A program made the position numbers and the translations under genes. Of a stretch of DNA of 64,000 nt, positions 9,989 to 60,417 are shown piece by piece; position 1 is the stretch's first letter, and each line of letters begins with the position of its first letter. Below the pieces are notes generated by a model that saw nothing but the letters and a program-made list of their open reading frames with translations, had not been told where the DNA came from and ran no database searches. The stretch is from a virus: the IMG/VR virus record IMGVR_UViG_3300042519_001303, positions 22,771 to 86,770 of that record; one strand, written 5' to 3'.

Positions 9989-10423
9989 TTACTTCATTGA
10001 GGATCGGAGTTGCCAAGCCCATTTTTGATGCATGTCAATGCGCTCTGACAAGAAGTTAGCAATACCTTGTTCATCGGCTTTCATAGCTGCTTCAAAGGTA
10101 TCTTTAAGAGATACAAGCAAAGAATCATTTGCTGTTAGCAATGACTTAGCCATTGCCTTAGGGGTAGTTTGTACATCCTTAAAATCAATAGTTCTTAGAT
10201 CAAGAAACTTCTGAAGACTAAAGGGGGCGTAATCATCTAGCTTCCGGATGTTTTCAGCAATGGGGTCAATTGCCCCATATGCATCTTCATAGATCTCAGA
10301 GAATAGGGAATGGTACTGACTGAAGTCCTGGCCCTCTACATTCCAGTGATACCCATGTGCCATAAAGTAAAATGTAACCACATCGGATACCAACACTTTG
10401 AGCGACTTAACTAAATCCTTCAT
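9989..10423 (-). CDS. dps: Dps-like ferritin (DNA protection during starvation family)
   Basis: Start placed at 10423 after AAGGAGTTATC; upstream ATGs lack a site. 144 residues, all-helical. Ferroxidase-type residues are present with exactly the Dps spacing: His26 (in AHGYHWNVEG), His38, Asp53 and Glu57, i.e. gaps of 12, 15 and 4. The family oxidises and stores iron and shields DNA from oxidative damage, forming dodecamers. In a phage it may protect replicating DNA. It lacks the long Lys-rich N-terminal tail of E. coli Dps; the small Lys-rich neighbours might serve that role (speculation). Confidence 0.85.
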   Translation of the reverse strand: MKDLVKSLKVLVSDVVTFYFMAHGYHWNVEGQDFSQYHSLFSEIYEDAYGAIDPIAENIRKLDDYAPFSLQKFLDLRTIDFKDVQTTPKAMAKSLLTANDSLLVSLKDTFEAAMKADEQGIANFLSERIDMHQKWAWQLRSSMK

Positions 10424-10499
10424 GATAACTCCTTGTTGTTTGGCCACCCTAAATCGTATCATTTTTGAATGGGGGTTGCGGAGGTGACTGGAGTGGGCT

Positions 10500-11765
10500 A
10501 TGATCACTAGTCCAATGGGAACCAGTAATGTTTTTGGAGGACGCTTTATAGCAGTCCCTGAGTGGGCAGTTGCTCATATCTTTGAGCATGGCCAACCTCG
10601 TGATCTGCATGTTTTAACATGCCTGGTTTCTATGATGCACATCCACAATAAATCTGCAGAAGTGTCAACTCAAGAGATTGCTGATGCATCACGTACATCA
10701 AAAGAAACTGTAAAACGTTCACTCAAATGGCTCTCTGAGCAACAAATAATTACCACAAAAATTAGACGCAAACCAAAGAAAAACATTTACATAATCAACT
10801 ACACACAACCAGCAATAGGGTCACCCATGACCCTATCAACCTCCAATACAAACCCCCCAATAGGGTCACCCATGACCCTACCCACTACCTCCAATGGGGT
10901 CACCCATGACCCTATCAAAATGAACATAACACCAGCACAAGTAACAAAAGCGCTGATCTCTAGAGAAATAGTAATAATAGAGAGTAATAGTAATAAAACC
11001 GTAAAGAAGGCCGATGGCCCTCGTGATAAGGTAGAGGATATGATTCTTGGCGCAGACGTAAACGAAAAAGCAAAGGTTGAAGAACCAGTAAAACGTAAAC
11101 CCCGACCAGAGGTAAATGACTTAGCTAGTTACTTTGTGTACCATCCCAGATCAGTAATGGTTTGTTCGTATTCTTTTCAGGACATGAACATTCTCCGCAG
11201 AACAATCAAGCTTCTACTAGACGCTGGTGTTTCACGAACAACCGTTCGTCAGATGATTGACAAGTTCTTTAGCACCGACCGTATGCGTGGAGCAGAATCC
11301 CCAGTTCTTATGTTTTCTAGCAAAGGTGTTCAAGCATCCCTAATGGAAACACTTGACACAGTGTTAGATAACACCAGCCCAATTCTAAGTTTGATGCTCA
11401 ATGATTTTAATCGTGAGGGGCTGGACTTACCTTGGGATAAAGCTTCTGATGAAGCCTTACGTAAGGTTATCATTATCTCAGGAATGGACGTTTGCTATAG
11501 ATACCCAGAGCTAGTAGCACAAGTTATTGAGCTAGCTGACGACTTCTCATCATCGTTATTTAGAAATCAAATTAGTTCTTTAAACTCCCTGGTCAAGTGG
11601 CATATTGGAGAAGAAGAGGTAGACCTTAAAGAACTACAGGAAGATCTTGTTGGTATCACACTTCCAAAAGAACTGCTTGCAAAAACTCGCACTACCCTCC
11701 GACCTGCTGCTGATACGATTGTTTCAGCGATTTACAACTATCGGAGAGTGACCCATGGAAATTGA
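10500..11765 (+). CDS. Replication initiator-like helix-turn-helix protein (lambda O-type)
   Basis: 421 residues. Residues ~30-100 form a winged-helix domain (VSTQEIADASRTSKETVKRSLKWLSEQQ), as in phage O proteins and replication organisers. Residues ~105-140 are a Pro/Ser/Thr linker repeating IGSPMTL, encoded by palindromic iterons, followed by an AT-rich stretch. The C-terminal ~200 residues are helical and may recruit the helicase loader. A DnaC-like loader and DnaB-type helicase follow, matching the lambda O-P logic. Divergent from the Dps operon across 76 bases. The initiator role is inference from domain, iterons and neighbours. Confidence 0.75.
   Translation: MITSPMGTSNVFGGRFIAVPEWAVAHIFEHGQPRDLHVLTCLVSMMHIHNKSAEVSTQEIADASRTSKETVKRSLKWLSEQQIITTKIRRKPKKNIYIINYTQPAIGSPMTLSTSNTNPPIGSPMTLPTTSNGVTHDPIKMNITPAQVTKALISREIVIIESNSNKTVKKADGPRDKVEDMILGADVNEKAKVEEPVKRKPRPEVNDLASYFVYHPRSVMVCSYSFQDMNILRRTIKLLLDAGVSRTTVRQMIDKFFSTDRMRGAESPVLMFSSKGVQASLMETLDTVLDNTSPILSLMLNDFNREGLDLPWDKASDEALRKVIIISGMDVCYRYPELVAQVIELADDFSSSLFRNQISSLNSLVKWHIGEEEVDLKELQEDLVGITLPKELLAKTRTTLRPAADTIVSAIYNYRRVTHGN
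10815..10915. repeat. Three palindromic iterons, candidate replication origin
   Basis: Copies: 10815-10836 (ATAGGGTCA-CCCA-TGACCCTAT, 9-bp arms), 10860-10881 (8-bp arms) and 10894-10915 (one arm base changed, ATGGGGTCA). Start-to-start distances are 45 and 34 bp. Copies one and two are read as IGSPMTL, copy three in another frame as GVTHDP, so the DNA rather than the peptide is conserved. The location inside an initiator-like gene parallels the lambda ori. Confidence 0.75.
10916..11005. other. AT-rich segment next to iterons, candidate DNA unwinding element
   Basis: Immediately after the third iteron. The stretch from about 10965 to 11000 is almost only A and T with short TAATAG/AGTAATA repeats, still inside the initiator coding frame (encoding IVIIESNSNK). 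Lambda-type origins place an AT-rich unwinding region on one side of the iterons. Unwinding function is inferred, not shown. Confidence 0.45.
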
Positions 11766-15132: not shown

Positions 15133-16680
15133 ATGTTTACAGGTTCCCTTTACCCCTACCAAGAAGAATCAGTTGAAAAGATGCTTGACCGTGGTCAAGT
15201 GCTTCTTGGGCTTGTCATGGGAGCAGGCAAAACCGTTACAACTATCTCTTGCATAGAAACCCTTTTAGTCAATAGAGACATTGACCGATGTTTAGTTGTT
15301 GTCCCAGCATCGCTCAAGTATCAGTGGAAACGTGAAATACAGAGGTTTACAAACTCCAGAGTAACTGTTATTGATGGCCCTGCAAAGACTAGAGAGAAAC
15401 TTTGGAAAGCAGCCATTTCATCACAGTATGTGATTGTTAATACTGAATGCCTTATTAGAGACCTAGATTTCTTTAAACGCATCCCATGTCAAGCAATTGT
15501 GGTGGACGAAGCAACCATGCTTAAATCTCGTTCAAGTAAACGATCTAAGATGGTAAAAAGGATATCCAAACCAATGGTCTATAGGTACGCCTTAACCGGC
15601 CAGCCAATTGAAAACCGACCAGAAGAGCTGTTCTCCATCATGGAGTTTGTTGACCCAACGGTACTGGGCCCATTTGATGCCTTTGACAGAACCTTTATAG
15701 TTCGTGATTACTATGGTAAACCCGTGCGCTATAGAAACTTAAACAACCTACATTCTTCAATGGAAGACTGCATGATCAGAAAAACTAGAGAAGATATTGC
15801 TGATCAGCTTCCTGAAATTATCCACCAGTTAATTCCTGTACCATTTGATACCCACGGGGCAACATTATACAGAACTATTGCAACTGACCTGCTGCACCAG
15901 CTTCAGCAAGCCATGTCCAAACACGGTGGTTCTTTCAATCTATGGAAGCATTACAATGACCCAGCCTCCAACGAAGCACAAGGGCAGATCATGTCTAGAT
16001 TAACTGTCCTTAGAATGCTATGTGACAACCCAAATCTGGTATCAAGATCCGCTGCAATATATGCAGATCCAAAACGCCCTAACGAGGGAAGCGCCTACGC
16101 ATTTGATATTGATTCAAGAGGCTACTTATCTAAAGCAATAGACACCCCAAAACTTAATGCAGTAGTTGAGTACATTGAAGAAGTCCTTAGTGCAGACCCA
16201 AAAAATAAAGTAGTGCTATTTTCTTTCTTTAAAGAAAACCTAAGATTAATTAAGGAAGCTACTTCTAAGTTAACAAAGAGTGTTTTATTCATGGGAGGGA
16301 TGTCAGCAGAAGATCGTGACAACTCTAAACAGCAGTTTGGTACCGACCCAGACACTCGTTTATTCCTATCCTCCGACGCAGGTGGTTATGGTGTTGACTT
16401 ACCTATGGCCAACTACCTAATTTCATATGACCTTCCATGGAGCAGTGGAAAGCTCGAACAAAGAGAAGCAAGAATTATTAGACTTTCCTCAGAATTTCCT
16501 CACGTTACTATTGCAACTTTTGTTATGCAGGGTAGTATTGAAGAACGCCAATACGAAATGCTTCAACAAAAACGGTCAATCAATGAAGCATTCGTGGATG
16601 GCAAACACCATGATGTTCGTGGTGGGTTTGACATAACACTAGGAAGCCTCACGCAATTCCTGCGTGAATCACACGTATAG
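15133..16680 (+). CDS. SNF2-family DEAD/H-box helicase
   Basis: 515 residues, starting directly after the primase stop. Motif I MGAGKT at 29-34, motif Ia VVVPASLKYQW, motif II DEAT at 125-128, motif III ALTGQPIEN, and in the second RecA lobe the motif V/VI region YDLPWSSGKLEQREARI. SNF2-like proteins translocate on double-stranded DNA. In phages they are proposed to remodel forks or recombination intermediates, like T4 UvsW. A second, different SNF2 protein is encoded at 43474-44946. Confidence 0.85.
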   Translation: MFTGSLYPYQEESVEKMLDRGQVLLGLVMGAGKTVTTISCIETLLVNRDIDRCLVVVPASLKYQWKREIQRFTNSRVTVIDGPAKTREKLWKAAISSQYVIVNTECLIRDLDFFKRIPCQAIVVDEATMLKSRSSKRSKMVKRISKPMVYRYALTGQPIENRPEELFSIMEFVDPTVLGPFDAFDRTFIVRDYYGKPVRYRNLNNLHSSMEDCMIRKTREDIADQLPEIIHQLIPVPFDTHGATLYRTIATDLLHQLQQAMSKHGGSFNLWKHYNDPASNEAQGQIMSRLTVLRMLCDNPNLVSRSAAIYADPKRPNEGSAYAFDIDSRGYLSKAIDTPKLNAVVEYIEEVLSADPKNKVVLFSFFKENLRLIKEATSKLTKSVLFMGGMSAEDRDNSKQQFGTDPDTRLFLSSDAGGYGVDLPMANYLISYDLPWSSGKLEQREARIIRLSSEFPHVTIATFVMQGSIEERQYEMLQQKRSINEAFVDGKHHDVRGGFDITLGSLTQFLRESHV

Positions 16681-34307: not shown

Positions 34308-34777
34308 TGATATTGTTTAACTTTTCTGTATTGGCCCGTCCAGCAGATTCAATAGCACTCCGTCAGCCAGATCCACAAGGGCTTTATATTTGGCGTATGT
34401 TGCATGAACAGTCACTTGGACGCATATGCCTAGTAGTTAATGAGGACTACAGCAAATTAGTACTTGAAGATTGGCTTAAAAAAGAAGGAATAAAACCTTC
34501 ATTTTATGAAATGCTTGATGAACCTGACCCTTATCTACAGGCAGAGAAGATAAACCGTATTGGTGCAATATTTGGCAAGCCGGAATGGTACGTAGATAAC
34601 AACCCTAGAACCTGTGCAGAGCTACTTAAACTAGGCATGGCTACCCTTTTAATTGCTTCCCCTTATCTAGTACGACCTGAATGGTCTAACATGAAGATAA
34701 TAAAAGAGTGGGATGTTTTAGTTGAGGAATTAGACAGTCAAGCCCTAAAGGCTGCTGAGAAGACCTGGAGAGAGTAA
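34307..34777 (+). CDS. Unknown protein, possible HAD-like fold
   Basis: GTG start overlapping the previous TAG. 156 residues. ICLVVNEDYSKLVLEDWLKKE and WYVDNNPRTCAELLKLGMAT look like the strand-helix pattern and the DNNP motif of degenerate HAD-type proteins, in which a late Asp follows a strand. The N-terminal catalytic DxD is not seen, so enzymatic activity is doubtful. Transcribed with the next gene, overlapping by one base. Confidence 0.5.
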   Translation: MILFNFSVLARPADSIALRQPDPQGLYIWRMLHEQSLGRICLVVNEDYSKLVLEDWLKKEGIKPSFYEMLDEPDPYLQAEKINRIGAIFGKPEWYVDNNPRTCAELLKLGMATLLIASPYLVRPEWSNMKIIKEWDVLVEELDSQALKAAEKTWRE

Positions 34778-36204
34778 TGCACATATTCTTTGGAGGTGCT
34801 GAAAAAGGCACCCATAGAAACCTACTTATAGCTAATGACATAACTAGAGTAGCTGTTAACGTCACTCACTTACCTATCCCAAAACGTAAAGAGTTTAATC
34901 CTCAAGAGGTATTTGCCTCCGCTGAAATACTGGTGTACACATCAGAGGGGGATGAAGACCTTAATAAGTACGAAACTTTCGTAAGAGACCACGCTGACTC
35001 CCTATCAGTTGTTATTGGGCGTCCTGATATGGATGGAGACTGGCTGGGAGACAAGTATGTCCCGGTATGGTCAGATGACGACGATTTAGAAAGATTGGCA
35101 TGGTTATGTCAACGTTATGGTAGAGCTGCCATATCAGACAAGGCTATAAACTCTAAAACACTTCCGCGTATCCGGTCCCTCTCGCAGCGTTGGGGAGCAA
35201 AGCTTTATGGTTTAACAAGTAAACCTGATGTTATCCAATCATTACCTTGGGAAGCTGTTGTAGTGGGATCATGGACCTCATCCATACGCTACGGCGAAAC
35301 CCAAATATGGGACGGTCATGGTCTCCACAGATACCCTGCGCAGCAGAAAGAATCTGCTCGTAAAAAGCATAGAGCAGACATTTTAAGATTAGGTATTGAT
35401 TACGATGCAATCTTAGAAGATAACGTAACGGCGGTTGGGTCACTTGCAATCAAGTCTTGGAAGGCCTGGGAGCAGTCCACATTTTTGGGCTATGACCCCC
35501 AAGTTATTGATGATGAGTCCGAGTTTGGAGAGGTAGAAGAGGGGGATATAGTTGCTATACCCCCTATGTCACCTAATGCGGATAAACCGGTTTCTAAGGG
35601 GGGTAATATTGCTATCTCCCACCTAGAGAAGCGGCACGAAAGTGACCGTGTATTGCTACCGGTTATGGGCATAGAACATATCTTGTCAATGGGTACACAA
35701 AGTGGCTCTGAACAGGGAGAACACATAGAAATTGCCCCTACAGAGACACCTGTTATTAGGTACCAAAGTGGTCCTCTACGACAATGCGATAGTTGCTATC
35801 TTGCATCGCGTTGTCCTGCATTCAAGGAACATTCAGATTGTGGGTTTAAGTTACCTGTAGAAATACGTTCTAAGGATCAGTTAAACGCTGTTCTACAGGC
35901 CATGATTGAGATGCAAGCTAGCCGAGTTTTGTTTGCAAGATTTGCTGAAGAACTGGAAGGCCAAGGTCTTGACCCAGCTTTGTCATCAGAGATGGATAGG
36001 TTATTCTCCCTCATTGACAAGTTCAAGAATATTTCTGACACCCGTGATCTTATGCGTATTGAAGTGGAAGCAAGAGGTAACGCAGGGGTACTTTCTAGAC
36101 TGTTTGGTAGCAAAGCTGGAGAAACAGCTAGACAACTTCCTAGTGGAGGATTGGGCCCAAATCAGACTGACCAATTTATTCAAGATGTAATTGACTTAAG
36201 CTAA
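34777..36204 (+). CDS. Unknown 475-aa protein with Cys cluster
   Basis: The N-terminal ~170 residues are alpha/beta (MHIFFGGAEKGTHRNLLIAN; SLSVVIGRPDMDGDWLGD; AKLYGLTSKP). The centre is acidic and disordered. A cysteine cluster CDSCYLASRCPAFKEHSDC lies near residue 340, then a helical C-terminal region (MDRLFSLIDKFKNISDTRDL). The helical end is somewhat like small terminase or sigma-type regions, but I cannot assign either. It forms an overlapping trio with the two genes before it. Confidence 0.5.
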   Translation: MHIFFGGAEKGTHRNLLIANDITRVAVNVTHLPIPKRKEFNPQEVFASAEILVYTSEGDEDLNKYETFVRDHADSLSVVIGRPDMDGDWLGDKYVPVWSDDDDLERLAWLCQRYGRAAISDKAINSKTLPRIRSLSQRWGAKLYGLTSKPDVIQSLPWEAVVVGSWTSSIRYGETQIWDGHGLHRYPAQQKESARKKHRADILRLGIDYDAILEDNVTAVGSLAIKSWKAWEQSTFLGYDPQVIDDESEFGEVEEGDIVAIPPMSPNADKPVSKGGNIAISHLEKRHESDRVLLPVMGIEHILSMGTQSGSEQGEHIEIAPTETPVIRYQSGPLRQCDSCYLASRCPAFKEHSDCGFKLPVEIRSKDQLNAVLQAMIEMQASRVLFARFAEELEGQGLDPALSSEMDRLFSLIDKFKNISDTRDLMRIEVEARGNAGVLSRLFGSKAGETARQLPSGGLGPNQTDQFIQDVIDLS

Positions 36205-36244: not shown

Positions 36245-36544
36245 ATGGAAAGAACATGGTGGAAAAACAACAAGCAGGTTACACCTAATAACAACAATGT
36301 TATTGTTGGTAAAAATGCGTACCAATCGGGAAATATCTCTGGTGGGAGCATGATAAATGGTGCAACAATTGAAGCTACTGTAATTGGCATAGAAGAGGTT
36401 ATGGGGTATCTATCAACAAAGGGTTGCACACTTTGGGGCAATTGGGATATCTCTTCAGAAGATGGTCTTCAAGATGCCGCTGAATGGTTAACCACTGAAA
36501 TATACAACGTATTACTATTTGTTTCACAAGAAGAAACAGAATGA
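36245..36544 (+). CDS. 99-aa protein with NNNVxVGKNAxQSGN motif
   Basis: Starts after AAGGAGGAACC. Residues ~13-38 read NNNVIVGKNAYQSGNISGG then SMINGATI, closely matching residues ~145-170 of the 641-residue protein at 31660. Short-period N/G patterns like this often form beta-solenoid rungs. The C-terminal part is helical and acidic with W residues. It overlaps the WhiB-like gene by four bases. Confidence 0.6.
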   Translation: MERTWWKNNKQVTPNNNNVIVGKNAYQSGNISGGSMINGATIEATVIGIEEVMGYLSTKGCTLWGNWDISSEDGLQDAAEWLTTEIYNVLLFVSQEETE

Positions 36545-36924
36545 CCTCTAAACCTTGGATGGAAGAGTCACCATGCAAGGGAATACATCCAAACTTGTTT
36601 TTCCCCCCATTAGAGGAGACCAACCACAATGCCTACTACAAAGTGGGTAAGGCAGTATGCAACACTTGTCCAGTGTGGCAAAGTTGCCTCGATTATGGTA
36701 TTGAAGAACACTGGGGTTTGTGGGGTGGATTGACACCTCAAGAAAGACGTGGTACAGCAAGAATGCATCATGGATCTCTTGAAATGTATCGTTCAGGATG
36801 CAGATGTCCTAAGTGTAGAGAGGCCTCTGTAGTAGTTAGGAAACATGTCACATTAGACATATTCCCTGCTAGAGGGCAAGATTTTGACATAGAATCATTA
36901 GTTTTTAAACTTTCTAGCATGTGA
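36541..36924 (+). CDS. whiB: WhiB-like iron-sulfur transcription factor (first copy)
   Basis: 127 residues. Cys12, Cys40, Cys43 and Cys49 match the C...CxxCxxxxxC cluster ligands, followed by HWGLWGGLTPQERR (GLWGG at 59-63). A C-terminal extension (CRCPKCREASVVVRKHV) adds three cysteines and basic residues. WhiB proteins bind a [4Fe-4S] cluster and the host sigma factor SigA region 4; phage copies can reprogram host transcription, as WhiBTM4 does. Strong marker for an actinobacterial host. Confidence 0.88.
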   Translation: MTSKPWMEESPCKGIHPNLFFPPLEETNHNAYYKVGKAVCNTCPVWQSCLDYGIEEHWGLWGGLTPQERRGTARMHHGSLEMYRSGCRCPKCREASVVVRKHVTLDIFPARGQDFDIESLVFKLSSM

Positions 36925-40034: not shown

Positions 40035-40505
40035 TCACAACTCCTTTTGCAAAGTATCGGGATCGTAACCAATATCAGTAAGGAACTCACGCAGTCTTTT
40101 AATTTCTGCGTTAAGTGCATGATACAGGTGCTGTCTTTCAATGTTCTCAATGAGAGCAACTTTTTCTAGGTGCTCAGGATTACAACACAATGTATTTCTG
40201 CACAAGTGGTCAAGTGTTTCGGCCTTAGTCAAAGATACGTGTCTGTGTTGTTCATATGACCATCTGTGAGACTGAAATGCTTTGTTCCCGACGTACATAC
40301 GGCCATAACCTTTATCAACAGTTCCTGTCCATGTCCAGCAACCATTTTCTTCTTTTTTTATGTTCTTCCAGAACTTATCTTCAGGAAGTTGTGATTTTTC
40401 AATGATATGCAACTTACCATCACGTTTCAATTGTTTGTAATGGGCGGCGCATAACCCTTTAGCCACAGTTTTTTCACTACATAACGGGCCACGGCATAGG
40501 CTCAT
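40035..40505 (-). CDS. HNH endonuclease
   Basis: 156 residues after GGAGAAAACC. The Cys pairs CRGPLC and C(AAHYK) at the N terminus and the HNH core ETLDHLCRNTLCCNPEHLEK (His-Asn-His with the 'DHLCRN..C.NP.HLE' pattern) identify a small phage HNH nuclease. Could be a free-standing homing endonuclease or a nuclease for host DNA. It is the last gene before a leftward membrane-peptide gene; an upstream motif TTGCGAC recurs (see findings). Confidence 0.85.
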   Translation of the reverse strand: MSLCRGPLCSEKTVAKGLCAAHYKQLKRDGKLHIIEKSQLPEDKFWKNIKKEENGCWTWTGTVDKGYGRMYVGNKAFQSHRWSYEQHRHVSLTKAETLDHLCRNTLCCNPEHLEKVALIENIERQHLYHALNAEIKRLREFLTDIGYDPDTLQKEL

Positions 40506-40650: not shown

Positions 40651-40914
40651 CTAATGTTTATGATTTACAGGAGCAAATACAAGACCTAGTTCTTTACGTA
40701 TTTTGTTACGTTCTCTAGATGTCTTGCCACCATATATTCCGTAGGTGTCATATATGGGGTTAATGTGTACGGCCTCATCTAAGCATTCAGCTTTGACTGA
40801 ACATGTATCACATATCTTTCTTGCTTCTTTACTTGACTCACCTTTACTAAGGAAGAATCTTTCTGTTGGTATGCCAAGACAAGCAGCCATGGATCGCCAT
40901 TCTTTAGTTTCCAT
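40651..40914 (-). CDS. whiB: WhiB-like iron-sulfur transcription factor (second copy)
   Basis: 87 residues. Cys12, Cys35, Cys38 and Cys44 are the cluster ligands, and GIYGG lies at 59-63, before KTSRERNK. Shorter than the copy at 36541 and lacking its cysteine-rich extension. On the opposite strand from the first copy, so the two are likely expressed at different times. Ends at a strong terminator. Confidence 0.85.
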   Translation of the reverse strand: METKEWRSMAACLGIPTERFFLSKGESSKEARKICDTCSVKAECLDEAVHINPIYDTYGIYGGKTSRERNKIRKELGLVFAPVNHKH

Positions 40915-43120: not shown

Positions 43121-43477
43121 TCACTTCACTCGTAGTTGTTTGTATTCGGTTTTCTTGGTTACTTGCTCAACCACATCAGGCTTGATTGTGCCCAACTTAA
43201 CTGCGGCGTCAATCAATGCTGTATCAACAGTTGGCTTTGTTATCTTGTTAAAGACTGAAGCACTTATCATGTCTTTCAATGCAGTTGCATCGAATGATCT
43301 GCGAGCGTTAACTTGCAACTCAATGACATTCTTATCTACTTCAATGGTCTTAAGGCCGGTTGAAAACATGAACTCTTTGAGCTTTGCATCCAACTCGTCA
43401 AACTCTGCCTGTAACTCAGCAAGAGCTTTCTTCTTTTCTAACCATTCTTTACCTAGATTGAATGAGTTAACCTTCAT
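43121..43477 (-). CDS. Unknown coiled-coil protein (118 aa)
   Basis: The N-terminal coiled coil KEWLEKKKALAELQAEFDEL is followed by a small domain (GLKTIEVDKNVIELQVNARR), reminiscent of phage Gp157-like or nuclease-accessory proteins, but similarity is not strong enough to name it. Overlaps the SNF2 gene end by four bases. Confidence 0.6.
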   Translation of the reverse strand: MKVNSFNLGKEWLEKKKALAELQAEFDELDAKLKEFMFSTGLKTIEVDKNVIELQVNARRSFDATALKDMISASVFNKITKPTVDTALIDAAVKLGTIKPDVVEQVTKKTEYKQLRVK

Positions 43478-44946
43478 GGATTTACCTTCTTTCGTTTGTA
43501 GGAGTCAAGCACTCCGTTTTGGATTGTTTCAAGTAACACTTCAGCTTCCCCATCAATAAGTATTCCTGTTGAGAACGCCTTATCTTCAAGGACACCCCAC
43601 AATCTTTCATCAATTGTTTGGCGACCCTCTATATGACACAGTGGAATGGTAACGCATACATCCATTGACTGTGAAATTCTGTGTACTCTATCCTCTGCTT
43701 GTTTGAGCGAGGCAGGGTTCCACGGTAACTGCGCAATAATTGTTCGGTGGTTTACGTTAATACCATTACCAGTAAGAGTCAAGCCCGTACCAGCAGAGAT
43801 TATCTGACCTACCATAACTCTTGAAGCGCCACTGTTAAAGTCATTGACTGCTTTATGCTTAGCAGATTCTGACATACCACCACGAACCTCGCAAACTTTA
43901 TATTTGCTTAGGCCCGCAGATAAAGCGTTCATAGTGTCCACATGCTCGGCAACTATAAACACACCACCAGGTTCGTTATCTAATACTTCAGATACAAACT
44001 TGATTATTGATTCAACCTTAGCTTTACCCACATGCTTACGCAAAAAACCAAGCTGTACTAATGCATATGCTCTTTCGGCCCCAGTCGTATCTTTGTCTAA
44101 TGATTCAAGCCATGCAATCAAATCATTCTCGCAGGCTATGTAGTCATCAACAGCGGTACCTGTTCCCTCAAGAACAACAGTTGATCTTGTTTTTGTAGGT
44201 AAATCTATTACTTCATCTCTTTTACGCCTAAACATAAAAGAAGCATGCATCTTGTTTTTAAGGTCCAGATCATTAGTGGATATTCTTCCTACTTTTTTAC
44301 CATTAATGATTACCCCAGACCATGGGGCATAGTGTTGCCAAAAGTAACCAATGCCACCAACCCCTTGCCATGCATTAGGGCCAAGAGTATCTATCTGTGT
44401 TACCAACTCCATGTTTCGCCCATTAGGCGCAGGTGTTCCTGACATAAGAACACGTATTGCGTTAGTGGGCATGTATTGACTAAGACTTATCAAAGCTTTA
44501 GTACGTTTAGAGTTGTTCTTAAAGAAATGAGCTTCATCAACTATAAGAGCGTCTATCTCTCCCATAAGTACTAAAACCCATTGTGCTAAAACTGCGTTAC
44601 CAATTATGTATACATCGGCATCTGGCAAACCAGATGGAGACTTACCTCGTAAAACGGCAACGTTTATATTCTTATTGAACTTACCAAATTCTGTTACCCA
44701 ATTTAATATAAGACTTGGCGGAACTATGATAAGTACTTTTTGTTGCAGCTGCTCAACCAAAGCTGAGGCAACTGCTATTGCTACCGCTGTTTTACCTAAC
44801 CCCATATCTAACGCTAAATAAGATTGCTGTTTATCAACAGCCCATTCAAACGCTTCTACTTGATAATCAAATAGATCTAGATTGAGGCTAGGTAAATACA
44901 ACAGATTGGACGCCGGCACGTTTGCCGAACTGAGTTGTCCACTCAT
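43474..44946 (-). CDS. SNF2/SMARCAL1-like helicase (second copy)
   Basis: 490 residues after CCGGAGGACGA. Motif I DMGLGKT at 47-53, motif Ia IIVPPSLILNW, motif II DEAH at 137-140, motif III LMSGTPAPNG, and second-lobe motifs VGQIISAGTGLTLTG and QAEDRVHRISQ. The sequence looks closer to SMARCAL1-like annealing helicases than the copy at 15133, which has DEAT. The two are likely not functional duplicates. Co-transcribed with the VWA-MoxR pair upstream. Confidence 0.88.
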   Translation of the reverse strand: MSGQLSSANVPASNLLYLPSLNLDLFDYQVEAFEWAVDKQQSYLALDMGLGKTAVAIAVASALVEQLQQKVLIIVPPSLILNWVTEFGKFNKNINVAVLRGKSPSGLPDADVYIIGNAVLAQWVLVLMGEIDALIVDEAHFFKNNSKRTKALISLSQYMPTNAIRVLMSGTPAPNGRNMELVTQIDTLGPNAWQGVGGIGYFWQHYAPWSGVIINGKKVGRISTNDLDLKNKMHASFMFRRKRDEVIDLPTKTRSTVVLEGTGTAVDDYIACENDLIAWLESLDKDTTGAERAYALVQLGFLRKHVGKAKVESIIKFVSEVLDNEPGGVFIVAEHVDTMNALSAGLSKYKVCEVRGGMSESAKHKAVNDFNSGASRVMVGQIISAGTGLTLTGNGINVNHRTIIAQLPWNPASLKQAEDRVHRISQSMDVCVTIPLCHIEGRQTIDERLWGVLEDKAFSTGILIDGEAEVLLETIQNGVLDSYKRKKVNP

Positions 44947-45218
44947 TCGTCCTCCGGAATATACAATGGATTACCTAAGTCATCCAAGTACACCAACTTT
45001 GTGGCGTCAGTGGGATGGCCCCACTGACACCCAAAGTCTTCCGATGCCCAACCAGCGACAACGCTTAACACGTCATCAATGGTTGGGTTTGGGAATTCTC
45101 CATGAACTTGCATAGCAGATAAGACACGTTCAATGTCATAACTAATTAGTTTAACTACCTGTATAACACCAGGTAGCTCTTCCTCTATTTCCGTGTCAGA
45201 AACATCTGACCATTCCAT
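44943..45218 (-). CDS. Unknown acidic protein (91 aa)
   Basis: Starts after AGGAGGTTAT. Acidic with two helices (IQVVKLISYDIERVLSAMQ; TIDDVLSVVAGWASED). Four-base overlap with the SNF2 gene. Unknown; possibly a regulator of either flanking machine. Confidence 0.55.
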   Translation of the reverse strand: MEWSDVSDTEIEEELPGVIQVVKLISYDIERVLSAMQVHGEFPNPTIDDVLSVVAGWASEDFGCQWGHPTDATKLVYLDDLGNPLYIPEDE

Positions 45219-45226
45219 ATAACCTC

Positions 45227-47440
45227 CTAGGCTAGGAATCCGATAAGAGCTTTCTCAATTTCCTTAGGAAGATCCATGACGTTATCAATACCAATTGCTA
45301 CGTCACCACCCTTTTTAGCCACTAGATCTTTGGCGTAACCAGGAGTACCAAGACCTACTAACAACCAATACTGTCCGGGTTCTACGAATGGTTTAATTGA
45401 ATTAACATACGACCATTCTCCGTCAGTGAGTATAACAACCAGGTGTCGTTGTTTACCCGCATTTTGATTTTTAATTTGGCGTAATCCTTCAAGTGGATTC
45501 GTTCCACCACCATCATGAATTAGCACTGGCGTGATCGGTTCATCGTTATCCCAGATCATGTATGGTTCAGTGTCAAAGGTAGATACTGTGCATGGAACAC
45601 CTAGGCTATCGCAAGCACTACGAATACCATAAGCAGCAACGGAAAGTTGATCCATCCATCCTCCCATAGATCCTGAAGTATCTAACATAACAGATACCGC
45701 AAGACTATGGCCATGAGCGCCTTCGCCTTCGTAGTCCACCCAGTAGTCTGAGTCACCAGGTTCGTGCATCTTGTATGACGTTGGGTCAAGCACACCATGT
45801 TCCTGACGGAAACGCCATGCTGGGTCGGCAGTCAATGCTAATGGTTCAAGAGCCGATAACATTTGATTGGCTACTGCAATAGAATCAACTAACAAGTTAC
45901 TTGGCATTTCTGATACTGCACCGTTATGTGGCAAGTCTCTCATAAGTTCTGAGTTGATCTCGGAGATTAGTTGACCTATTTCTTCGTCAGTAACAACACG
46001 CTTCATTGCTTCTGCCGCTTTTTGTTTAAGATCCTCACGGATCTTGGCATAGTCAACATTTTCTTTGATTTGACCGCCAGTGCCTTTAGTACCACCAGTG
46101 TTGTTAATGAATTCTGTTGCAGTCTCATTACCATCTTTAGTGGGTGCTTCACCGTTAGCCTTACCTTCACCTTCCTTACCACCACCAGGTGACTCTTCTC
46201 CCTCCTCAGAGGATTCTTTCTTGGATTCACCTGGTTTTGTTTCCCAACCTTTTTCTTCGTTACCAAACGTTGGCTTCTTAGTTACTTGGGTTGCACCATT
46301 GTGCCCACTCTTGTGGTCACCTCCTGTAGGGTTAGGAGTACCTTTGCCTTCACGACCTCTACTATCGTCTGGTCGTGGTTCCTGACCATTGTTTGCACCA
46401 GTGATCCACTGCGTGATTAGGTTATGCAATTGCCATACAGCAATAACAACATCTGTTGCTGATCTCGACTCACGGTATACATGGACTTGGTTTTCAATTT
46501 GATCAACTAATGATATATCCATATCATTATCTAATGCAAACTTATATGCCAACTGACGAGCATTATCCATAAGCTCTTGATCTAAGTAAGATCTAGTCGT
46601 AACAAACGGCCATGAGTAACCAGGCTTAGTATCATCATTGATGTAGTTCAGCACAAGAGCAGTAAAATAGTCAATCAATGGAGGACTATTTATCACCATC
46701 TCTTCTTCCATGCGTCCATCTTCCAATAGATTCCATGATATTTGGATAGCATCAGCAAACGGTCTGTAGTGTTGCTGATGTGCATACCACTTATTAGTAA
46801 TGTTAGTTGCTGGATTAACAACTCTTTCACCAAATGGCACTCTGTCAAATACTGTAACTAATGAGCTACGAACATCCTCATAAGCTGGATACAGATTTGC
46901 AAACTCATCACCCCAACGAGTGTCGTGTGGGTTGATTGCAACAGGTAATAACCCATTGTCCATTAGTGCACAGTCAAACAGAGCTGACCACGGAAGAGTG
47001 CACAAAATGTGACCGCCTTCGTGATAAACAACTCCCTTGAGAGCAGCCAAAAGGCTACCAATCTTGTCCATGTCTGACGGATCAACCATACCCATATCGA
47101 ACGAGATGTTTATACCTTTAAAATCCGTAGCAGCATTTACTGATCTAGTTTCATTACGGTAATAGTTAACATCTAGCTTGAGTGGTGGATTGATACCCAA
47201 AGAAGTAAGAACCTTACGTGCTCGGTCGGCCAGCACATATGCAGTGGCCCTAATAGCTCGTGGATCATGCTTGCTTTTGGCAGAAAGGAAAGTCTTTTCA
47301 ACTATTTGGTCGTTTGAGTAAATTAACTCTAAGACTTCTTTGTTGTAAGACTCTCTAATCTTTGTAGCTTCACGACGGTTAAAGGAGCGGGCACTAGCAC
47401 GTCGTGCTAGTGCCTCCTCATCAAACTTTTTCTTTACCAT
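45227..47440 (-). CDS. VWA-domain protein with HEGGH motif (CobT/metallopeptidase-like), partner of MoxR ATPase
   Basis: 737 residues. The N-terminal half contains VVYHEGGHILCTLPW (HEGGH at 140-144), an HExxH zincin-like motif. An acidic, Gly/Lys/Glu-rich linker spans ~350-460. The C-terminal VWA domain has a full MIDAS: DTSGS at 587-591, Thr in GGGTNP and Asp in LTDGE. Same layout as CobT and DUF2201-type proteins that work with MoxR AAA+ ATPases in metal insertion or protein remodelling. No cobalamin genes are nearby, so a CobT role is doubtful. Confidence 0.8.
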   Translation of the reverse strand: MVKKKFDEEALARRASARSFNRREATKIRESYNKEVLELIYSNDQIVEKTFLSAKSKHDPRAIRATAYVLADRARKVLTSLGINPPLKLDVNYYRNETRSVNAATDFKGINISFDMGMVDPSDMDKIGSLLAALKGVVYHEGGHILCTLPWSALFDCALMDNGLLPVAINPHDTRWGDEFANLYPAYEDVRSSLVTVFDRVPFGERVVNPATNITNKWYAHQQHYRPFADAIQISWNLLEDGRMEEEMVINSPPLIDYFTALVLNYINDDTKPGYSWPFVTTRSYLDQELMDNARQLAYKFALDNDMDISLVDQIENQVHVYRESRSATDVVIAVWQLHNLITQWITGANNGQEPRPDDSRGREGKGTPNPTGGDHKSGHNGATQVTKKPTFGNEEKGWETKPGESKKESSEEGEESPGGGKEGEGKANGEAPTKDGNETATEFINNTGGTKGTGGQIKENVDYAKIREDLKQKAAEAMKRVVTDEEIGQLISEINSELMRDLPHNGAVSEMPSNLLVDSIAVANQMLSALEPLALTADPAWRFRQEHGVLDPTSYKMHEPGDSDYWVDYEGEGAHGHSLAVSVMLDTSGSMGGWMDQLSVAAYGIRSACDSLGVPCTVSTFDTEPYMIWDNDEPITPVLIHDGGGTNPLEGLRQIKNQNAGKQRHLVVILTDGEWSYVNSIKPFVEPGQYWLLVGLGTPGYAKDLVAKKGGDVAIGIDNVMDLPKEIEKALIGFLA

Positions 47441-47455
47441 GATTCCTCCTCAGGA

Positions 47456-48736
47456 TCAGTATGGTTCCTCATCAGAGATGAGGGACGTAAGGTCAACTGC
47501 TGGTGCAGTAGCGGCAGGTTCAAACTCATCACGCATCATGACCGCAATACCACGATCTTTGATGATCTCGTTCACCACAATCTTTTCTTGTGATGACACG
47601 AACTGGCCCATGAAGGCCCAGAGACTGAAGTCAACTCCAAGATGAACCAAGTCACCTTCAAGCAACTGTAATGCTCTAGTACCAACAGGGGTAGTAATGC
47701 TACGTTGTGCACGAGCATTACGTAATGCTTGACCAAGCAGACGAACTGCTGGTGACTTGATCAATTTCTTCTCAACCTCTTCGTCATATCCCCATTCAAG
47801 GAGCTTGAAGCGGTTAGCGAAGGCCTCGTTTGTCTTGGCCATTCCAGCGTAGCCTGGGTTCCATGAAGCCATGATCCACAGGTTCTTATTCGCCACTACT
47901 GTTTCTGGGCGATAAGCACCGTGGTGCGTCTCAACACCAGTCACTTCGTCAACCTCAACCGTGCCTTTCCAGACAGGCTTACGGATGTTGACAAACTGAT
48001 GACGATTGTCAAGCAGTGGGTGAATAGCCGCTGTTACTGAACCTGACATGGCGTTAACCTCGTCAAGGTACAAGATACCGCCAAGACGAGCGGCGAGAGC
48101 AACGATGCCCTCCATCCACACAAGCCGTTCTTGTCCATTCACGATGATCGGACGATACTGACCGAATAGGTCGTGGTCGGTAATCGCTGATGAACCTGCA
48201 AGCAGGAACAACGGCAATGGCTTCTGAAGGCCGAGCAACTTCGCAATACGGAACGCTTGAACTTGGATCAAGTATGTCTTACCCGACTGGGTATCGCCTA
48301 CCAAGGCAACGGATACTGGGTAACCATCGTTCTCATCACGACGATTGAAATAACCTTCCATTACTTCAAGGTCTGTCTTACCGCCTGCCAGAACACGAGA
48401 CACATAATTGCGTGGATCGATATTCGGACGGAAGTCGTCCAATGCGGGGTCGTCGAGACTGTCGATACGCATATCGCTGATGATTACGTTGCCAACTTGT
48501 GATGTTATGGTGCTGGACGGGGCGGCGTTTGCAACGCTAGCACGTCCAATCAACTCCACACCCTTAGGCAATATCTCGACAGTGCCTAACAGTGTATCGT
48601 CAAACATCACTTGAATCTTGCTACCAGGTCCCCCTGGTACAAGCGTACTGCGGGTGATTACCCCTTCAGCATCCTTGAATGGTGGGTACTTGCCCACCAC
48701 TCTCATACCTACTCGCAACTCTTTGACACTGGCCAT
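47456..48736 (-). CDS. MoxR/CobS-type AAA+ ATPase
   Basis: 426 residues after AAGGAGGACAACAAA. An N-terminal SH3/KOW-like beta domain (residues ~8-65, MRVVGKYPPFKDAEGVI) is followed by Walker A GDTQSGKT at 147-154, Walker B ILYLDEVN at 221-228 and LAGSSAITDHDLFGQ, a MoxR-type loop. MoxR ATPases remodel proteins together with VWA partners; the VWA gene is 15 bases downstream. GC is visibly higher here than in the tail genes (58% in the 60 bases from 48061 versus 30% from 2041). Confidence 0.85.
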   Translation of the reverse strand: MASVKELRVGMRVVGKYPPFKDAEGVITRSTLVPGGPGSKIQVMFDDTLLGTVEILPKGVELIGRASVANAAPSSTITSQVGNVIISDMRIDSLDDPALDDFRPNIDPRNYVSRVLAGGKTDLEVMEGYFNRRDENDGYPVSVALVGDTQSGKTYLIQVQAFRIAKLLGLQKPLPLFLLAGSSAITDHDLFGQYRPIIVNGQERLVWMEGIVALAARLGGILYLDEVNAMSGSVTAAIHPLLDNRHQFVNIRKPVWKGTVEVDEVTGVETHHGAYRPETVVANKNLWIMASWNPGYAGMAKTNEAFANRFKLLEWGYDEEVEKKLIKSPAVRLLGQALRNARAQRSITTPVGTRALQLLEGDLVHLGVDFSLWAFMGQFVSSQEKIVVNEIIKDRGIAVMMRDEFEPAATAPAVDLTSLISDEEPY

Positions 48737-57489: not shown

Positions 57490-58302
57490 ATGAAATACGG
57501 AATAGGTATCACAACACGAAATAGACCAGAATGTCTTGAAGTTTGCCTCCGACATTTCGCAAAATTTGGCTACGGTGACAAAATTGTTGTTATAGATGAC
57601 AATAGTGAGATGTGGCAAGTTAACAAAATTGTTGCTGAATCATTCGGTATTAACGTTATATACAAATATAGCAATTCACGCCTTGGTGTATCAAAAGCAA
57701 AAAATGCATGTCTATGGGAATTGCGTGATTGCGAACATGTATTCTTATTTGATGATGATGCTTGGCCTCAATGTGATAACTGGGCTGAAACATGGGTCAA
57801 TATAAATGAAGTAAACAATGTTGGACACTCTATGTTTAATGTCACTGCTTCAGACCTACTGGAATTAAATCCAGCATTTAAAGCAGTTGTTCAACCAATC
57901 TCTTCAATTGGTACTGATGAAACAAAAATGGTTTCATTTTCTAACTGTTTTGGCGTAATGCTCTACTTTAATAGAAAGTGCCTAGATACCTTAGGTGGCT
58001 ATCTCAATGATACCCCGCATCCGTATGGATATGAGCATGCTCAGATTAGTATGAGGGCAAATATGGCAGGATTTACACAAGGCCACCAATATCTTACGCC
58101 AGCAATTGCAAGCGAACTAATTTACAGTATTGATATTACCTATTGCATGTTAAAAATTACTCCACCTTTAGATGCTCGCTGGATAGGGAACTTTCACTCA
58201 TCAGTAACATTGGAAGAATCATCTCAAGCAGGAAAAAACTCTGCCATAATGGGTATCCAAGAAGTATACTCTCCACTAGTAGCCCAATTAGATCAAGGAT
58301 AA
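57490..58302 (+). CDS. Family 2 glycosyltransferase
   Basis: 270 residues. YGIGITTRNRPECLEVCL at the start, KIVVIDDNSE and HVFLFDDDAWPQ (DDD metal-binding motif) match GT-A family 2 enzymes that use nucleotide sugars. No membrane segments, so it is a soluble enzyme. First gene of a four-gene sugar cassette (to 60417). Confidence 0.8.
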   Translation: MKYGIGITTRNRPECLEVCLRHFAKFGYGDKIVVIDDNSEMWQVNKIVAESFGINVIYKYSNSRLGVSKAKNACLWELRDCEHVFLFDDDAWPQCDNWAETWVNINEVNNVGHSMFNVTASDLLELNPAFKAVVQPISSIGTDETKMVSFSNCFGVMLYFNRKCLDTLGGYLNDTPHPYGYEHAQISMRANMAGFTQGHQYLTPAIASELIYSIDITYCMLKITPPLDARWIGNFHSSVTLEESSQAGKNSAIMGIQEVYSPLVAQLDQG

Positions 58303-58304
58303 AA

Positions 58305-58976
58305 ATGTCTGAAATGACCATACTCGTTCCATCCCGTGGACGACCCCAAAATATAATGCGTCTAATGAACGCTTGGAGTATGACAACTACACGCGATACA
58401 CGTCTGCTTGTACTTGTTGACAATGATGATCCCAAACTGGACGAATACCTTGCTATTCCTGATATTGACATGCAGGTTGGACCACGCCTCCGAATTGGTG
58501 GTACTCTCAATGCTGTGGCCCCAATTGAAGCAACAAAGTGTTTTGCTATTGGCTTTTTAGGAGACGATCACCTGCCCCGTACTAAGGGATGGGATGACCG
58601 ATTCCTTACTACACTGGAAAAGGCTAAAGTTGGAGTCACATGGGGTAATGATCTTTATCACGGCGCAAACCTGCCAACTGCAGTAGCCATGACCTCAAAT
58701 ATTGTTAATACTTTGGGATACTTTGTGATGCCTGGAGGTATCCACTTATTTTTAGACAACTTCTGGTTAGCAATAGGTCGAGGACTAGATAGCGCGCACT
58801 ACCTGGATGATGTCATTATTGAGCATATACACCCATTTTTTGGAAAAGCAGAACATGATGAAACTTATACTGAAGCAAATGATGCAAAAGTATCAAGTGC
58901 GGATGAACTAACATTCAATAATTATGTTGCTACCCAACTACAATCTGACCTACAGAAACTGAGAACCATAAAATGA
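58305..58976 (+). CDS. Glycosyltransferase-like protein (GT-A)
   Basis: Start at 58305, ten bases after AAGG, three bases past the previous stop. 223 residues. MTILVPSRGRPQNIMRLMNA, LLVLVDNDD and FAIGFLGDDHLPR (GDD/H) follow the GT-A fold, although the acceptor part differs from the previous gene. Ends in an ATGA overlap with the methyltransferase. Confidence 0.7.
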   Translation: MSEMTILVPSRGRPQNIMRLMNAWSMTTTRDTRLLVLVDNDDPKLDEYLAIPDIDMQVGPRLRIGGTLNAVAPIEATKCFAIGFLGDDHLPRTKGWDDRFLTTLEKAKVGVTWGNDLYHGANLPTAVAMTSNIVNTLGYFVMPGGIHLFLDNFWLAIGRGLDSAHYLDDVIIEHIHPFFGKAEHDETYTEANDAKVSSADELTFNNYVATQLQSDLQKLRTIK

Positions 58977-59560
58977 GAGAAGATAGATTTTTCCCATTAG
59001 GTACCATCCCAGAGTATTGCACTGCTGAATGGTATTTGGACCGCGAAATTGCACCCCATGTTGACCAAGAAATGCACCGACCTCGGTTAGACGCCGCAGC
59101 ACGACTTGCTATGTCTGTATGGTCTCCAGAATTGACAGTTGTTGACCTAGGTTCTGGTGACGGTGGTCTTCTATCACTACTAACAGAAATCCCTAAATCC
59201 CAAAAATGGGGGTATGATTTGCAACCATCAAATGTCGCTGGAGCAGTAAATAGAAATCAGGATGTTCGTTACGGCAGCGTGTTTGACCCAATTGACTGGG
59301 CGGATATTGCTATCGCTACAGAAATGATTGAGCATCTAGCAGGACCACACCAGTTTGTCAATATGATTAGTCAAAAAAGCAAGTATCTGATTGCTAGCTC
59401 TCCATGGACAGAAAGTGTGCATAACCACTACGAATACCATGCTTGGGCATGGGACGTAGAAGGGTATGCTCATATGCTTGAATCAAATGGATGGAAAGTC
59501 ATCAGTCATGAAACGCCTGGTAATTTTCAAGTAGCACTATGCGAATCGTTAAACGTATGA
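58973..59560 (+). CDS. SAM-dependent methyltransferase-like protein
   Basis: 195 residues. LTVVDLGSGDGGLLSLL is the class I SAM-binding motif, followed by KWGYDLQPSN, ADIAIATEMIEHLAGPHQF and LIASSPWTESVHNHYEYH. Similar to small phage and bacterial sugar or lipid methyltransferases. Overlaps the epimerase gene by four bases. Substrate unknown; a sugar transferred by the neighbouring enzymes is plausible. Confidence 0.7.
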   Translation: MREDRFFPLGTIPEYCTAEWYLDREIAPHVDQEMHRPRLDAAARLAMSVWSPELTVVDLGSGDGGLLSLLTEIPKSQKWGYDLQPSNVAGAVNRNQDVRYGSVFDPIDWADIAIATEMIEHLAGPHQFVNMISQKSKYLIASSPWTESVHNHYEYHAWAWDVEGYAHMLESNGWKVISHETPGNFQVALCESLNV

Positions 59561-60417
59561 AAATTCTAATAACTGGAAATGCTGGCTTTGTTGGCAGAGA
59601 ATTCATGAAGCAGTTAGATGGTCATGATATAACTGGAATTGATATAGTAAATGGCATTGATGCAAGAGATTTCTTTGCAAAAGACAACACTAAATTTGAC
59701 CTAGTTATCCACCTAGCCGCAATTGTAGGTGGAAGAGCCACAATTGAAGGCAACCCACTAAAGGTAGCTACTGACCTTGCTATTGACTCCGACATGTTTC
59801 AATGGGCCTTGCGTACACGACCAGGTAGAACTGTGTATTACTCCTCCTCGGCAGCATATCCAACGGCATATCAAACTCATACTATGAAGTATGTTCTTAA
59901 TGAAAACCATATTGACCTAGACTCCATAATGTCTCCTGATCTAACTTACGGGTGGGCGAAACTTACAGGAGAAACTTTGGCTAAGTACGCCAGCAATGAG
60001 GGTCTCCGTGTCCATGTTTTCCGTCCATTTTCTGGGTACGGAGAAGATCAAGACTTAGATTATCCATTCCCCTCATTTATTGCAAGAGGAAAAAGAAAAG
60101 ATAATCCATTTGAAATTTGGGGTACTGGAGAACAAGTACGCGATTTCATACATATTGAAGACGTAGTTAGCGCAACTCTAGAAGCAGTTAACCAGGATAT
60201 TCAAGGCCCTGTTAATTTAGGATGTGGAAGAGCTACAAGCTTTAATGAACTGGCTAAATTGGTATCAACAGAAGTTGGGTACACACCAGAGATTAAGCAC
60301 ATCTTGGGGGCACCTGAAGGGGTTTCCTACCGTGTATGTGACCCTTCAAAACTTCTTACGTTCTATACTCCTAAAATATCCTTAGAAGAGGGCATACGTC
60401 GAGCTATTCGTTCCTGA
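59557..60417 (+). CDS. NAD-dependent sugar epimerase/dehydratase (SDR)
   Basis: Start at 59557 in an ATGA overlap (59539 is the longer alternative). 286 residues. ILITGNAGFVGREF is the Gly-rich NAD(P) site, DLVIHLAAIVGG the family strand, and YYSSSAAYP with TYGWAKLTGE the catalytic Ser/Tyr-x-x-x-Lys, as in GDP-fucose synthase or UDP-glucose 4-epimerase. Makes a nucleotide sugar for the two glycosyltransferases upstream. Confidence 0.85.
   Translation: MKILITGNAGFVGREFMKQLDGHDITGIDIVNGIDARDFFAKDNTKFDLVIHLAAIVGGRATIEGNPLKVATDLAIDSDMFQWALRTRPGRTVYYSSSAAYPTAYQTHTMKYVLNENHIDLDSIMSPDLTYGWAKLTGETLAKYASNEGLRVHVFRPFSGYGEDQDLDYPFPSFIARGKRKDNPFEIWGTGEQVRDFIHIEDVVSATLEAVNQDIQGPVNLGCGRATSFNELAKLVSTEVGYTPEIKHILGAPEGVSYRVCDPSKLLTFYTPKISLEEGIRRAIRS

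What the first reader, a model, noticed from the sequence alone, without database searches (positions are those of the whole stretch)
45227..48736. Phage-encoded MoxR AAA+ and VWA pair with HEGGH motif and higher GC
A MoxR-type ATPase (Walker A GDTQSGKT, N-terminal SH3-like domain) and a VWA protein (full MIDAS plus HEGGH in its N-terminal half) are adjacent and co-oriented. Such pairs remodel proteins or insert metals in bacteria (for example CobS/CobT, RavA/ViaA, NorQ/NorD). Here there are no cobalt, nickel or gas-vesicle genes, so the client is unknown. The zincin-like HEGGH and the SH3 fusion are unusual. The ATPase gene is richer in GC than the tail genes, hinting at different ancestry.
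Basis: partly seen in the sequence, partly recalled or inferred. Interest (0 to 1): 0.75.

Follow-up and report, generated by a model that had tools for sequence, protein, structure and literature searches.

The report
Phage ATPase and metalloprotease-VWA pair
A phage carries a gene pair usually labelled as vitamin B12 enzymes, but its second protein looks like a zinc protease fused to a docking domain, so the pair is more likely an ATP-driven protein-cutting or remodelling machine than a cobalt-inserting one.

Summary
In detail: a MoxR-type AAA+ gene (47456-48736, -) and a VWA gene (45227-47440, -) are adjacent and co-oriented, with HEGGH at residue 140 and a full MIDAS. HEGGH is no oddity of this phage: in loci found by searching with the ATPase alone, 69 of 69 distinct VWA partners have HExxH followed by E[DE]xRxE (shuffles: 1.4%). 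AlphaFold2 gives the N-terminal half a confident fold with HEGGH in one helix and the conserved Glu in a later one; 26 of the top 30 structural matches are zincins, each weak (Z at most 7.6). The ATPase is clearly CbbQ/NorQ-like (Z 23.3). CobT and CobT-like cellular proteins (8 of 8) lack HExxH, yet their N-domain is related to phage-plasmid N-domains that mostly keep it. So the usual "CobST" label is doubtful. The pair sits near replication and helicase genes. Against this: 20 of 54 related records hold a B12-type ribonucleotide reductase, though none was found in this one. The architecture was already reported for some jumbo phages. Client and catalysis are untested. The ATPase gene's high GC is intrinsic, not a sign of foreign ancestry.

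The parts
47456..48736 (-). MoxR/CbbQ/NorQ-type AAA+ ATPase (P0002, 426 aa)
   Evidence: Pfam AAA_5 and PHROG 249; AF2 model pLDDT 89.8, CbbQ 6l1q Z 23.3, NorQ 9qh4 Z 21.6
48542..48709 (-). N-terminal small beta-barrel (SH3/KOW-like) of the ATPase, about residues 10-65
   Evidence: five predicted strands at 12-62; weak KOW match in relative L021 only; not searched as a separate model
48275..48298 (-). Walker A GDTQSGKT, residues 147-154
   Evidence: sequence; G147 and K153 invariant in 57 aligned proteins
45227..47440 (-). metallopeptidase-like/VWA protein (P0001, 737 aa)
46400..47263 (-). predicted zincin-like domain plus helical extension, about residues 60-347
   Evidence: AF2 of residues 1-350: pLDDT 86.5, pTM 0.81; fold comparison
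47009..47023 (-). HEGGH, residues 140-144, in predicted helix 124-147
46706..46723 (-). EDGRME, residues 240-245, in predicted helix 214-251; E240 is the candidate third metal ligand
46031..46393 (-). low-complexity, acidic/Gly-rich linker, about residues 350-470
   Evidence: sequence and alignment
45227..45718 (-). VWA domain, about residues 575-737
   Evidence: CobT_C (PF11775) weak match below cut-off; PHROG 1576/1314; family profile aligns to CobT and other VWA structures
45668..45682 (-). MIDAS DTSGS, residues 587-591
44943..45218 (-). 91-aa protein of unknown function between the pair and the helicase
   Evidence: no Pfam match above cut-off and no PHROG match; homologues in the same place in L014, L015, L016
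43474..44946 (-). SNF2-family helicase downstream on the same strand
   Evidence: Pfam SNF2-rel_dom E 2.8e-21; same-strand neighbour of the pair in relatives

Best explanation
The pair is most likely an ATP-driven protein-processing machine of the infected cell. The AAA+ protein forms a CbbQ/NorQ-like ring with a small KOW/SH3-like domain in front. The VWA domain of the second protein docks on the ring (as NorD's does on NorQ), and its N-terminal gluzincin-like domain, joined by a flexible linker, binds a metal through H140, H144 and probably E240 and cuts a client that the ring pulls on or remodels. Shown here: gene pairing, conservation of the motifs, predicted zincin-like fold, ATPase type, no CobN found in the record. 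Inferred: ring assembly, docking, metal binding, proteolysis. Guessed: that the client acts on nucleic acid (replication or host transcription), because the gene neighbours are helicases, polymerases and nucleotide enzymes rather than virion genes.
For: 69 of 69 distinct VWA partners from ATPase-only scans keep HExxH and E[DE]xRxE. The P-SSM2 'peptidase' near its 'cobS' has HEVGH, CEDVRIE and a VWA MIDAS; that protein finds 463 phage records. AF2 model pLDDT 86.5 with HEGGH and E240 in two helices after three strands; 26 of the top 30 VIA rows are zincins by title or recall (HtpX Z 7.6, Wss1 6.0, jannalysin 5.8, selecase 5.7, SPRTN 5.3). ATPase Z 23.3 to CbbQ, 21.6 to NorQ, including NorQ-NorD VWA complexes. 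No CobN and no RNR found in the record. The E. coli control genome has no CobN match while 230 of the 972 plasmid records matched by a phage-plasmid relative are Escherichia, and the one E. coli copy read keeps HEVAH. Neighbours: SNF2/DNA helicase 15, DnaB 7 of 106 neighbouring ORFs scanned, no structural family among the 25 listed; dnaE/polymerase III alpha within about 4 kb in L185, L198, L199, L202, L203, L205 and L034.
Against: No activity is known. Foldseek gives no match at E 0.001 or better, and Z below 8 can be a common arrangement (note). Metal-site geometry was not measured. E240, R243 and E245 have counterparts in CobT, which has no HExxH, so they may be structural rather than catalytic. 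Some phage relatives lack HExxH (3 of 16 named phages and phage-plasmids), so cutting is not always needed. Class II RNR sits near the pair in one set of relatives.
Confidence: 0.55

Rival explanations
1. Virion-assembly chaperone and processing protease: the pair assembles tails or heads and trims structural proteins, as proposed for jumbo phages (PMC7824862).
For: The same architecture was assigned this role by analogy with the Acidianus two-tailed virus MoxR-vWA pair (passage read). Present in many tailed-phage records.
Against: No structural family among the 25 most frequent neighbour families of 106 ORFs from 59 loci; the pair lies among replication genes in named phages and phage-plasmids. 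Gene position alone does not exclude a late role.
Confidence: 0.2
2. CobS/CobT of cobaltochelatase that hijacks host CobN to raise cobalamin, feeding B12-dependent ribonucleotide reductase (proposal in PMC8651126, passage read).
For: Strong matches to ribonucleotide reductase PHROG 367 in 20 of 54 records; B12-dependent RNR insertion domain (PF21995) in 9 of 106 neighbouring ORFs; N-domain of phage-plasmid relatives matches Pfam CobT in 6 of 6; VWA part aligns with CobT.
Against: No RNR and no CobN found in this record; 30 of 54 records have no RNR match and 4 more only weak ones. CobT and CobT-like cellular proteins lack HExxH (0 of 8 plasmid-borne genes read). No PF06213 match in this record and no NCBIfam match for P0001. 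The E. coli control genome lacks CobN, yet E. coli phage-plasmids carry the pair.
Confidence: 0.12
3. Non-proteolytic reactivase/remodeller: HEGGH is a structural metal site or docking point, and the pair re-activates a phage or host enzyme as CbbQ/CbbO does Rubisco.
For: Closest ATPases are CbbQ and NorQ, whose partners are not proteases (recalled); some relatives lack HExxH.
Against: The Glu of HExxH, which is catalytic in zincins rather than a ligand (recalled), is kept in 69 of 69.
Confidence: 0.1

Closest known systems
MoxR AAA+ / vWA pair with N-terminal metallopeptidase of group 2.2 jumbo phages (PMC7824862; passages read)
   Same: Same two-gene architecture, metallopeptidase domain at the N-terminus of the vWA protein
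   Different: Their proteins (ASV44728/44729) were not compared here; this phage record is about 87 kb, the pair is followed by a SNF2 helicase, and there is a long insertion between HExxH and the ED motif (100 residues apart, against 32 in many relatives)
Cyanophage 'peptidase' (T4-GC 146) and 'cobS' (T4-GC 150), e.g. P-SSM2
   Same: HEVGH, CEDVRIE, VWA with DWSGS, nearby AAA+
   Different: Genes not adjacent (about 1.2 kb and three small genes apart); sequence identity about 19%
Cobaltochelatase CobS/CobT
   Same: AAA+ plus VWA; homologous N-domain by way of phage-plasmid proteins
   Different: CobT has no HExxH; no CobN found here
CbbQ/CbbO and NorQ/NorD activases
   Same: ATPase fold, Z 23.3 and 21.6; VWA partner
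   Different: VWA partners there are not known to carry a zincin domain (recalled)
Minigluzincins, HtpX/Ste24, Wss1/SPRTN
   Same: Helix with HExxH after a small sheet, Glu-bearing later helix
   Different: No significant sequence match; weak structural scores

Membership tests
Cobaltochelatase CobT | Pfam CobT (PF06213) / NCBIfam CobT match | tested here: not met
   PF06213: 0 matches in the record; no NCBIfam match for P0001. Phage-plasmid relatives do match PF06213, 6 of 6
Cobaltochelatase CobT | N-domain without a metalloprotease motif | tested here: not met
   CobT and CobT-like 0 of 8 with HExxH; P0001 has it
Cobaltochelatase CobNST | CobN subunit in the same genome | tested here: not met
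   PF02514 not found in the 86,770-base record, which may be a fragment; the host is unknown and could supply it
Cobaltochelatase CobNST | Cobalt insertion with host CobN | not testable with these tools
   needs biochemistry
MoxR/CbbQ/NorQ AAA+ clade | AAA+ fold closest to CbbQ/NorQ with Walker A | tested here: met
MoxR-VWA pairs | Adjacent VWA gene with MIDAS | tested here: met
   104 of 104 loci have a VWA hit within 566 bases, same strand in 99; DxSxS in 64 of 69 distinct proteins, 4 of the 5 misses truncated
Zincin (gluzincin-like) metallopeptidases | HExxH in a helix after a small sheet | tested here: met
   (predicted structure)
Zincin (gluzincin-like) metallopeptidases | Third ligand Glu in a later helix at metal-binding distance | tested here: inconclusive
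   E240 conserved and in helix 214-251; distances not measured
Zincin (gluzincin-like) metallopeptidases | Significant fold match to a solved zincin | tested here: inconclusive
   best Z 7.6; no Foldseek E at 0.001 or better
Phage MoxR-vWA-metallopeptidase (PMC7824862) | MoxR gene plus vWA gene with N-terminal metallopeptidase domain | tested here: met
   architecture as described in the passage; not aligned with the paper's own proteins

The most novel reading that the evidence does not exclude
Phage 'CobST' genes are in general not B12 genes but ATP-powered metalloproteases that clear or process proteins bound to nucleic acid (a phage counterpart of Wss1/SPRTN with Cdc48), here working with a SNF2 helicase; and the cobaltochelatase subunit CobT of bacteria descends from such a protein whose protease centre has decayed.
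Probability: 0.2. Interest if true: 0.8.

Novelty: new member of a known kind. Interest (0 to 1): 0.55.

Why it matters
cobS and cobT are counted as auxiliary metabolic genes of phages, and B12 boosting has been inferred from them (PMC8651126, PMC12043954; passages read). If the partner is an active metalloprotease, such inferences fall, and a common two-gene phage machine needs a client. The E. coli phage-plasmids that carry the pair make this testable in laboratory strains.

Tried and rejected
Foreign ancestry from GC: rejected, because the ATPase gene is richer in GC than its locus in 25 of 25 loci that I picked for the check. Relatives in cellular genomes: a scan of genome contigs with A3 matched 78 stretches but confirmed none, using one divergent query for confirmation, so it says little; a second scan with A4 was not possible because no stretch was conserved enough. 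A sequence-only PDB search with the N-domain profile gave nothing significant (best zincin Wss1, E 1.0). Direct profile comparison of the phage N-domain with CobT failed (probability 0.8%); the link rests on the intermediate phage-plasmid proteins. A phmmer search for the ATPase N-terminus found no solved relative. Structural rows of baculovirus capsid proteins (4 of the top 30) were not pursued. PF02867 as the RNR test proved weak, since only 2 of the 106 neighbouring ORFs match it while 12 match PHROG 367, so PHROG 367 was used. A haloarchaeal virus could not be checked: the accession I recalled led to an unrelated plasmid. The host was not identified; the DNA polymerase search gave only distant matches.

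Full report
WHAT IS THERE. The window is bases 22771-86770 of an 86,770-base virus record. On the - strand, an AAA+ gene (47456-48736) is followed 15 bases later by a VWA gene (45227-47440), then a 91-aa ORF and a SNF2 helicase. WhiB-type genes in the window suggest an actinobacterial host (inference). Two other contigs carry parts or all of the pair at 100% identity (L002, L003).

THE HEGGH IS CONSERVED. Scans of viral contigs with the ATPase alone gave 104 loci with 69 distinct VWA proteins; all 104 have a VWA hit within 566 bases, on the same strand in 99. HExxH and a later E[DE]xRxE occur in 69 of 69; shuffles give HExxH in 48 of 3450. DxSxS is present in 64 of 69; four of the five misses are truncated, L152 is full length. 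Six proteins read LEExR rather than LEDxR. The spacing from HExxH to this motif runs from 32 to 113 residues; the window's clade has the long form (100). In a 32-protein alignment that includes the six LEExR forms and the P-SSM2 protein, H, E, H, E, R and E are invariant. Among named phages and phage-plasmids read, HExxH is present in 13 of 16; Pseudomonas ZY21, Stenotrophomonas ANB28 and one Acinetobacter phage-plasmid lack it.

FOLD. AlphaFold2 on residues 1-350 (75 sequences) gave pLDDT 86.5 and pTM 0.81: a helix, three strands, helix 124-147 with HEGGH, and helix 214-251 with E240. VIA-align rows are dominated by zincins (26 of the top 30 by title and recall): HtpX Z 7.6, Wss1 6.0, leukotriene A4 hydrolases, jannalysin 5.8, selecase 5.7, Ste24 5.6, SPRTN 5.3, abylysin 5.2; four rows are baculovirus capsid proteins. 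Scores are weak one by one, and Foldseek has no E at 0.001 or better, its first row being selecase at 0.26. The ATPase model (pLDDT 89.8) matches CbbQ (Z 23.3, 253 residues, rmsd 2.2) and NorQ (21.6), well above the next family at 15.3. The start of the ATPase is a small barrel of five strands; a KOW match in L021 is below Pfam's cut-off.

RELATION TO CobT. Databases call these proteins CobT or porphyrin biosynthesis. CobT next to cobS on rhizobial and other plasmids has no HExxH: 0 of 8 CobT or CobT-like proteins; at the aligned place it reads, for example, GDSMALRLACH in Rhizobium, while VEQARVE stands where the phages have LEDxRxE. The profile of the phage N-domain matches that of the phage-plasmid N-domain (probability 98%, E 1.7e-13); the phage-plasmid profile matches CobT (E 5.9e-5, probability 65.5%, 113 columns that span both motifs), and 6 of 6 phage-plasmid N-domains hit Pfam CobT (best E 2.6e-20). 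The direct comparison of phage and CobT is not significant. I infer that CobT's N-domain is a decayed member of the same fold family; the direction (loss in CobT) is inference, no rooted tree was made.

CONTEXT. From 59 non-redundant loci, the 106 longest of 628 neighbouring ORFs within 5 kb were scanned. Most frequent: SNF2/DNA helicase (15), queuine tRNA-ribosyltransferase family (14), ribonucleotide reductase (12), DnaB (7); none of the 25 families listed (of 72) is structural. The SNF2 gene was found in 17 of the 59 loci, in 11 within 400 bases of the pair and on its strand (gaps by my arithmetic). Polymerase III alpha or other replication genes lie close by in several named phages and phage-plasmids. 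I did not compute a background rate for such neighbours.

THE B12 QUESTION. In favour of a B12 role: B12-type RNR (PF21995, 9 of 106 neighbours) and strong RNR matches in 20 of 54 pair-bearing records. Against: 30 of 54 have none and 4 only weak matches; the window's record has none, nor CobN; the RNR-positive records all have relatives of the HE[LIV]xH type, and none of the HEGGH/HEAGH-type records has one; the E. coli control genome lacks CobN though Escherichia makes up 230 of 972 plasmid records hit by a phage-plasmid relative. Records may be fragments, and only records that I chose from the loci in hand were searched.

LITERATURE. Passages read: PMC7824862 reports the MoxR-vWA-metallopeptidase pair in group 2.2 jumbo phages and proposes virion assembly; PMC8651126 calls it CobST, says cobT of cyanophages is mistakenly annotated as a peptidase and proposes hijack of CobN; PMC7159879 reviews MoxR-vWA systems; PMC3037559 lists cobS as cyanophage core; PMC2784084 only mentions cobS; PMC12043954 repeats the B12 view. 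In searches (listings only) I saw no paper that links CobT's N-domain to a lost zincin site or tests these phage proteins; that is a statement about those searches only.

VERDICT. A real, widespread phage machine of a kind already noticed in print; this locus is a new member. Most likely an AAA+/VWA metalloprotease or remodeller, not a cobaltochelatase. Client, catalysis and timing are open.

Noticed in passing
window 9989-10507 (-): Ferritin/Dps-like protein encoded by the phage (Pfam Ferritin E 7.7e-16).
   Followed up: partly
window 40651-40914 (-) and 36541-36924 (+): Two WhiB-type transcription factors (E 1.4e-15 and 3.3e-14), pointing to an actinobacterial host.
   Followed up: partly
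window 34777-36204 (+): Queuine tRNA-ribosyltransferase family protein (PHROG 887, E 8.6e-38); the same family is a frequent neighbour of the pair in relatives (14 of 106 ORFs), perhaps DNA modification.
   Followed up: no
window 15133-16680 (+) and 43474-44946 (-): Two SNF2-like helicases of PHROG 62 in one phage.
   Followed up: no
window 40035-40505 (-): HNH-like endonuclease close to the minus-strand cluster, below Pfam cut-offs.
   Followed up: no
window 57490-60417 (+): Glycosyltransferase and NAD-dependent epimerase genes near the right end.
   Followed up: no
L186:2912-4834: Acinetobacter phage-plasmid copy whose HExxH reads QEVAK, while another Acinetobacter copy (L197) keeps HEVAH: repeated loss of the motif.
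   Followed up: partly
P0001 residues 145-235 (window 46736-47008, -): Long clade-specific insertion between HExxH and the ED motif, about 70 residues more than in many relatives; role unknown.
   Followed up: no
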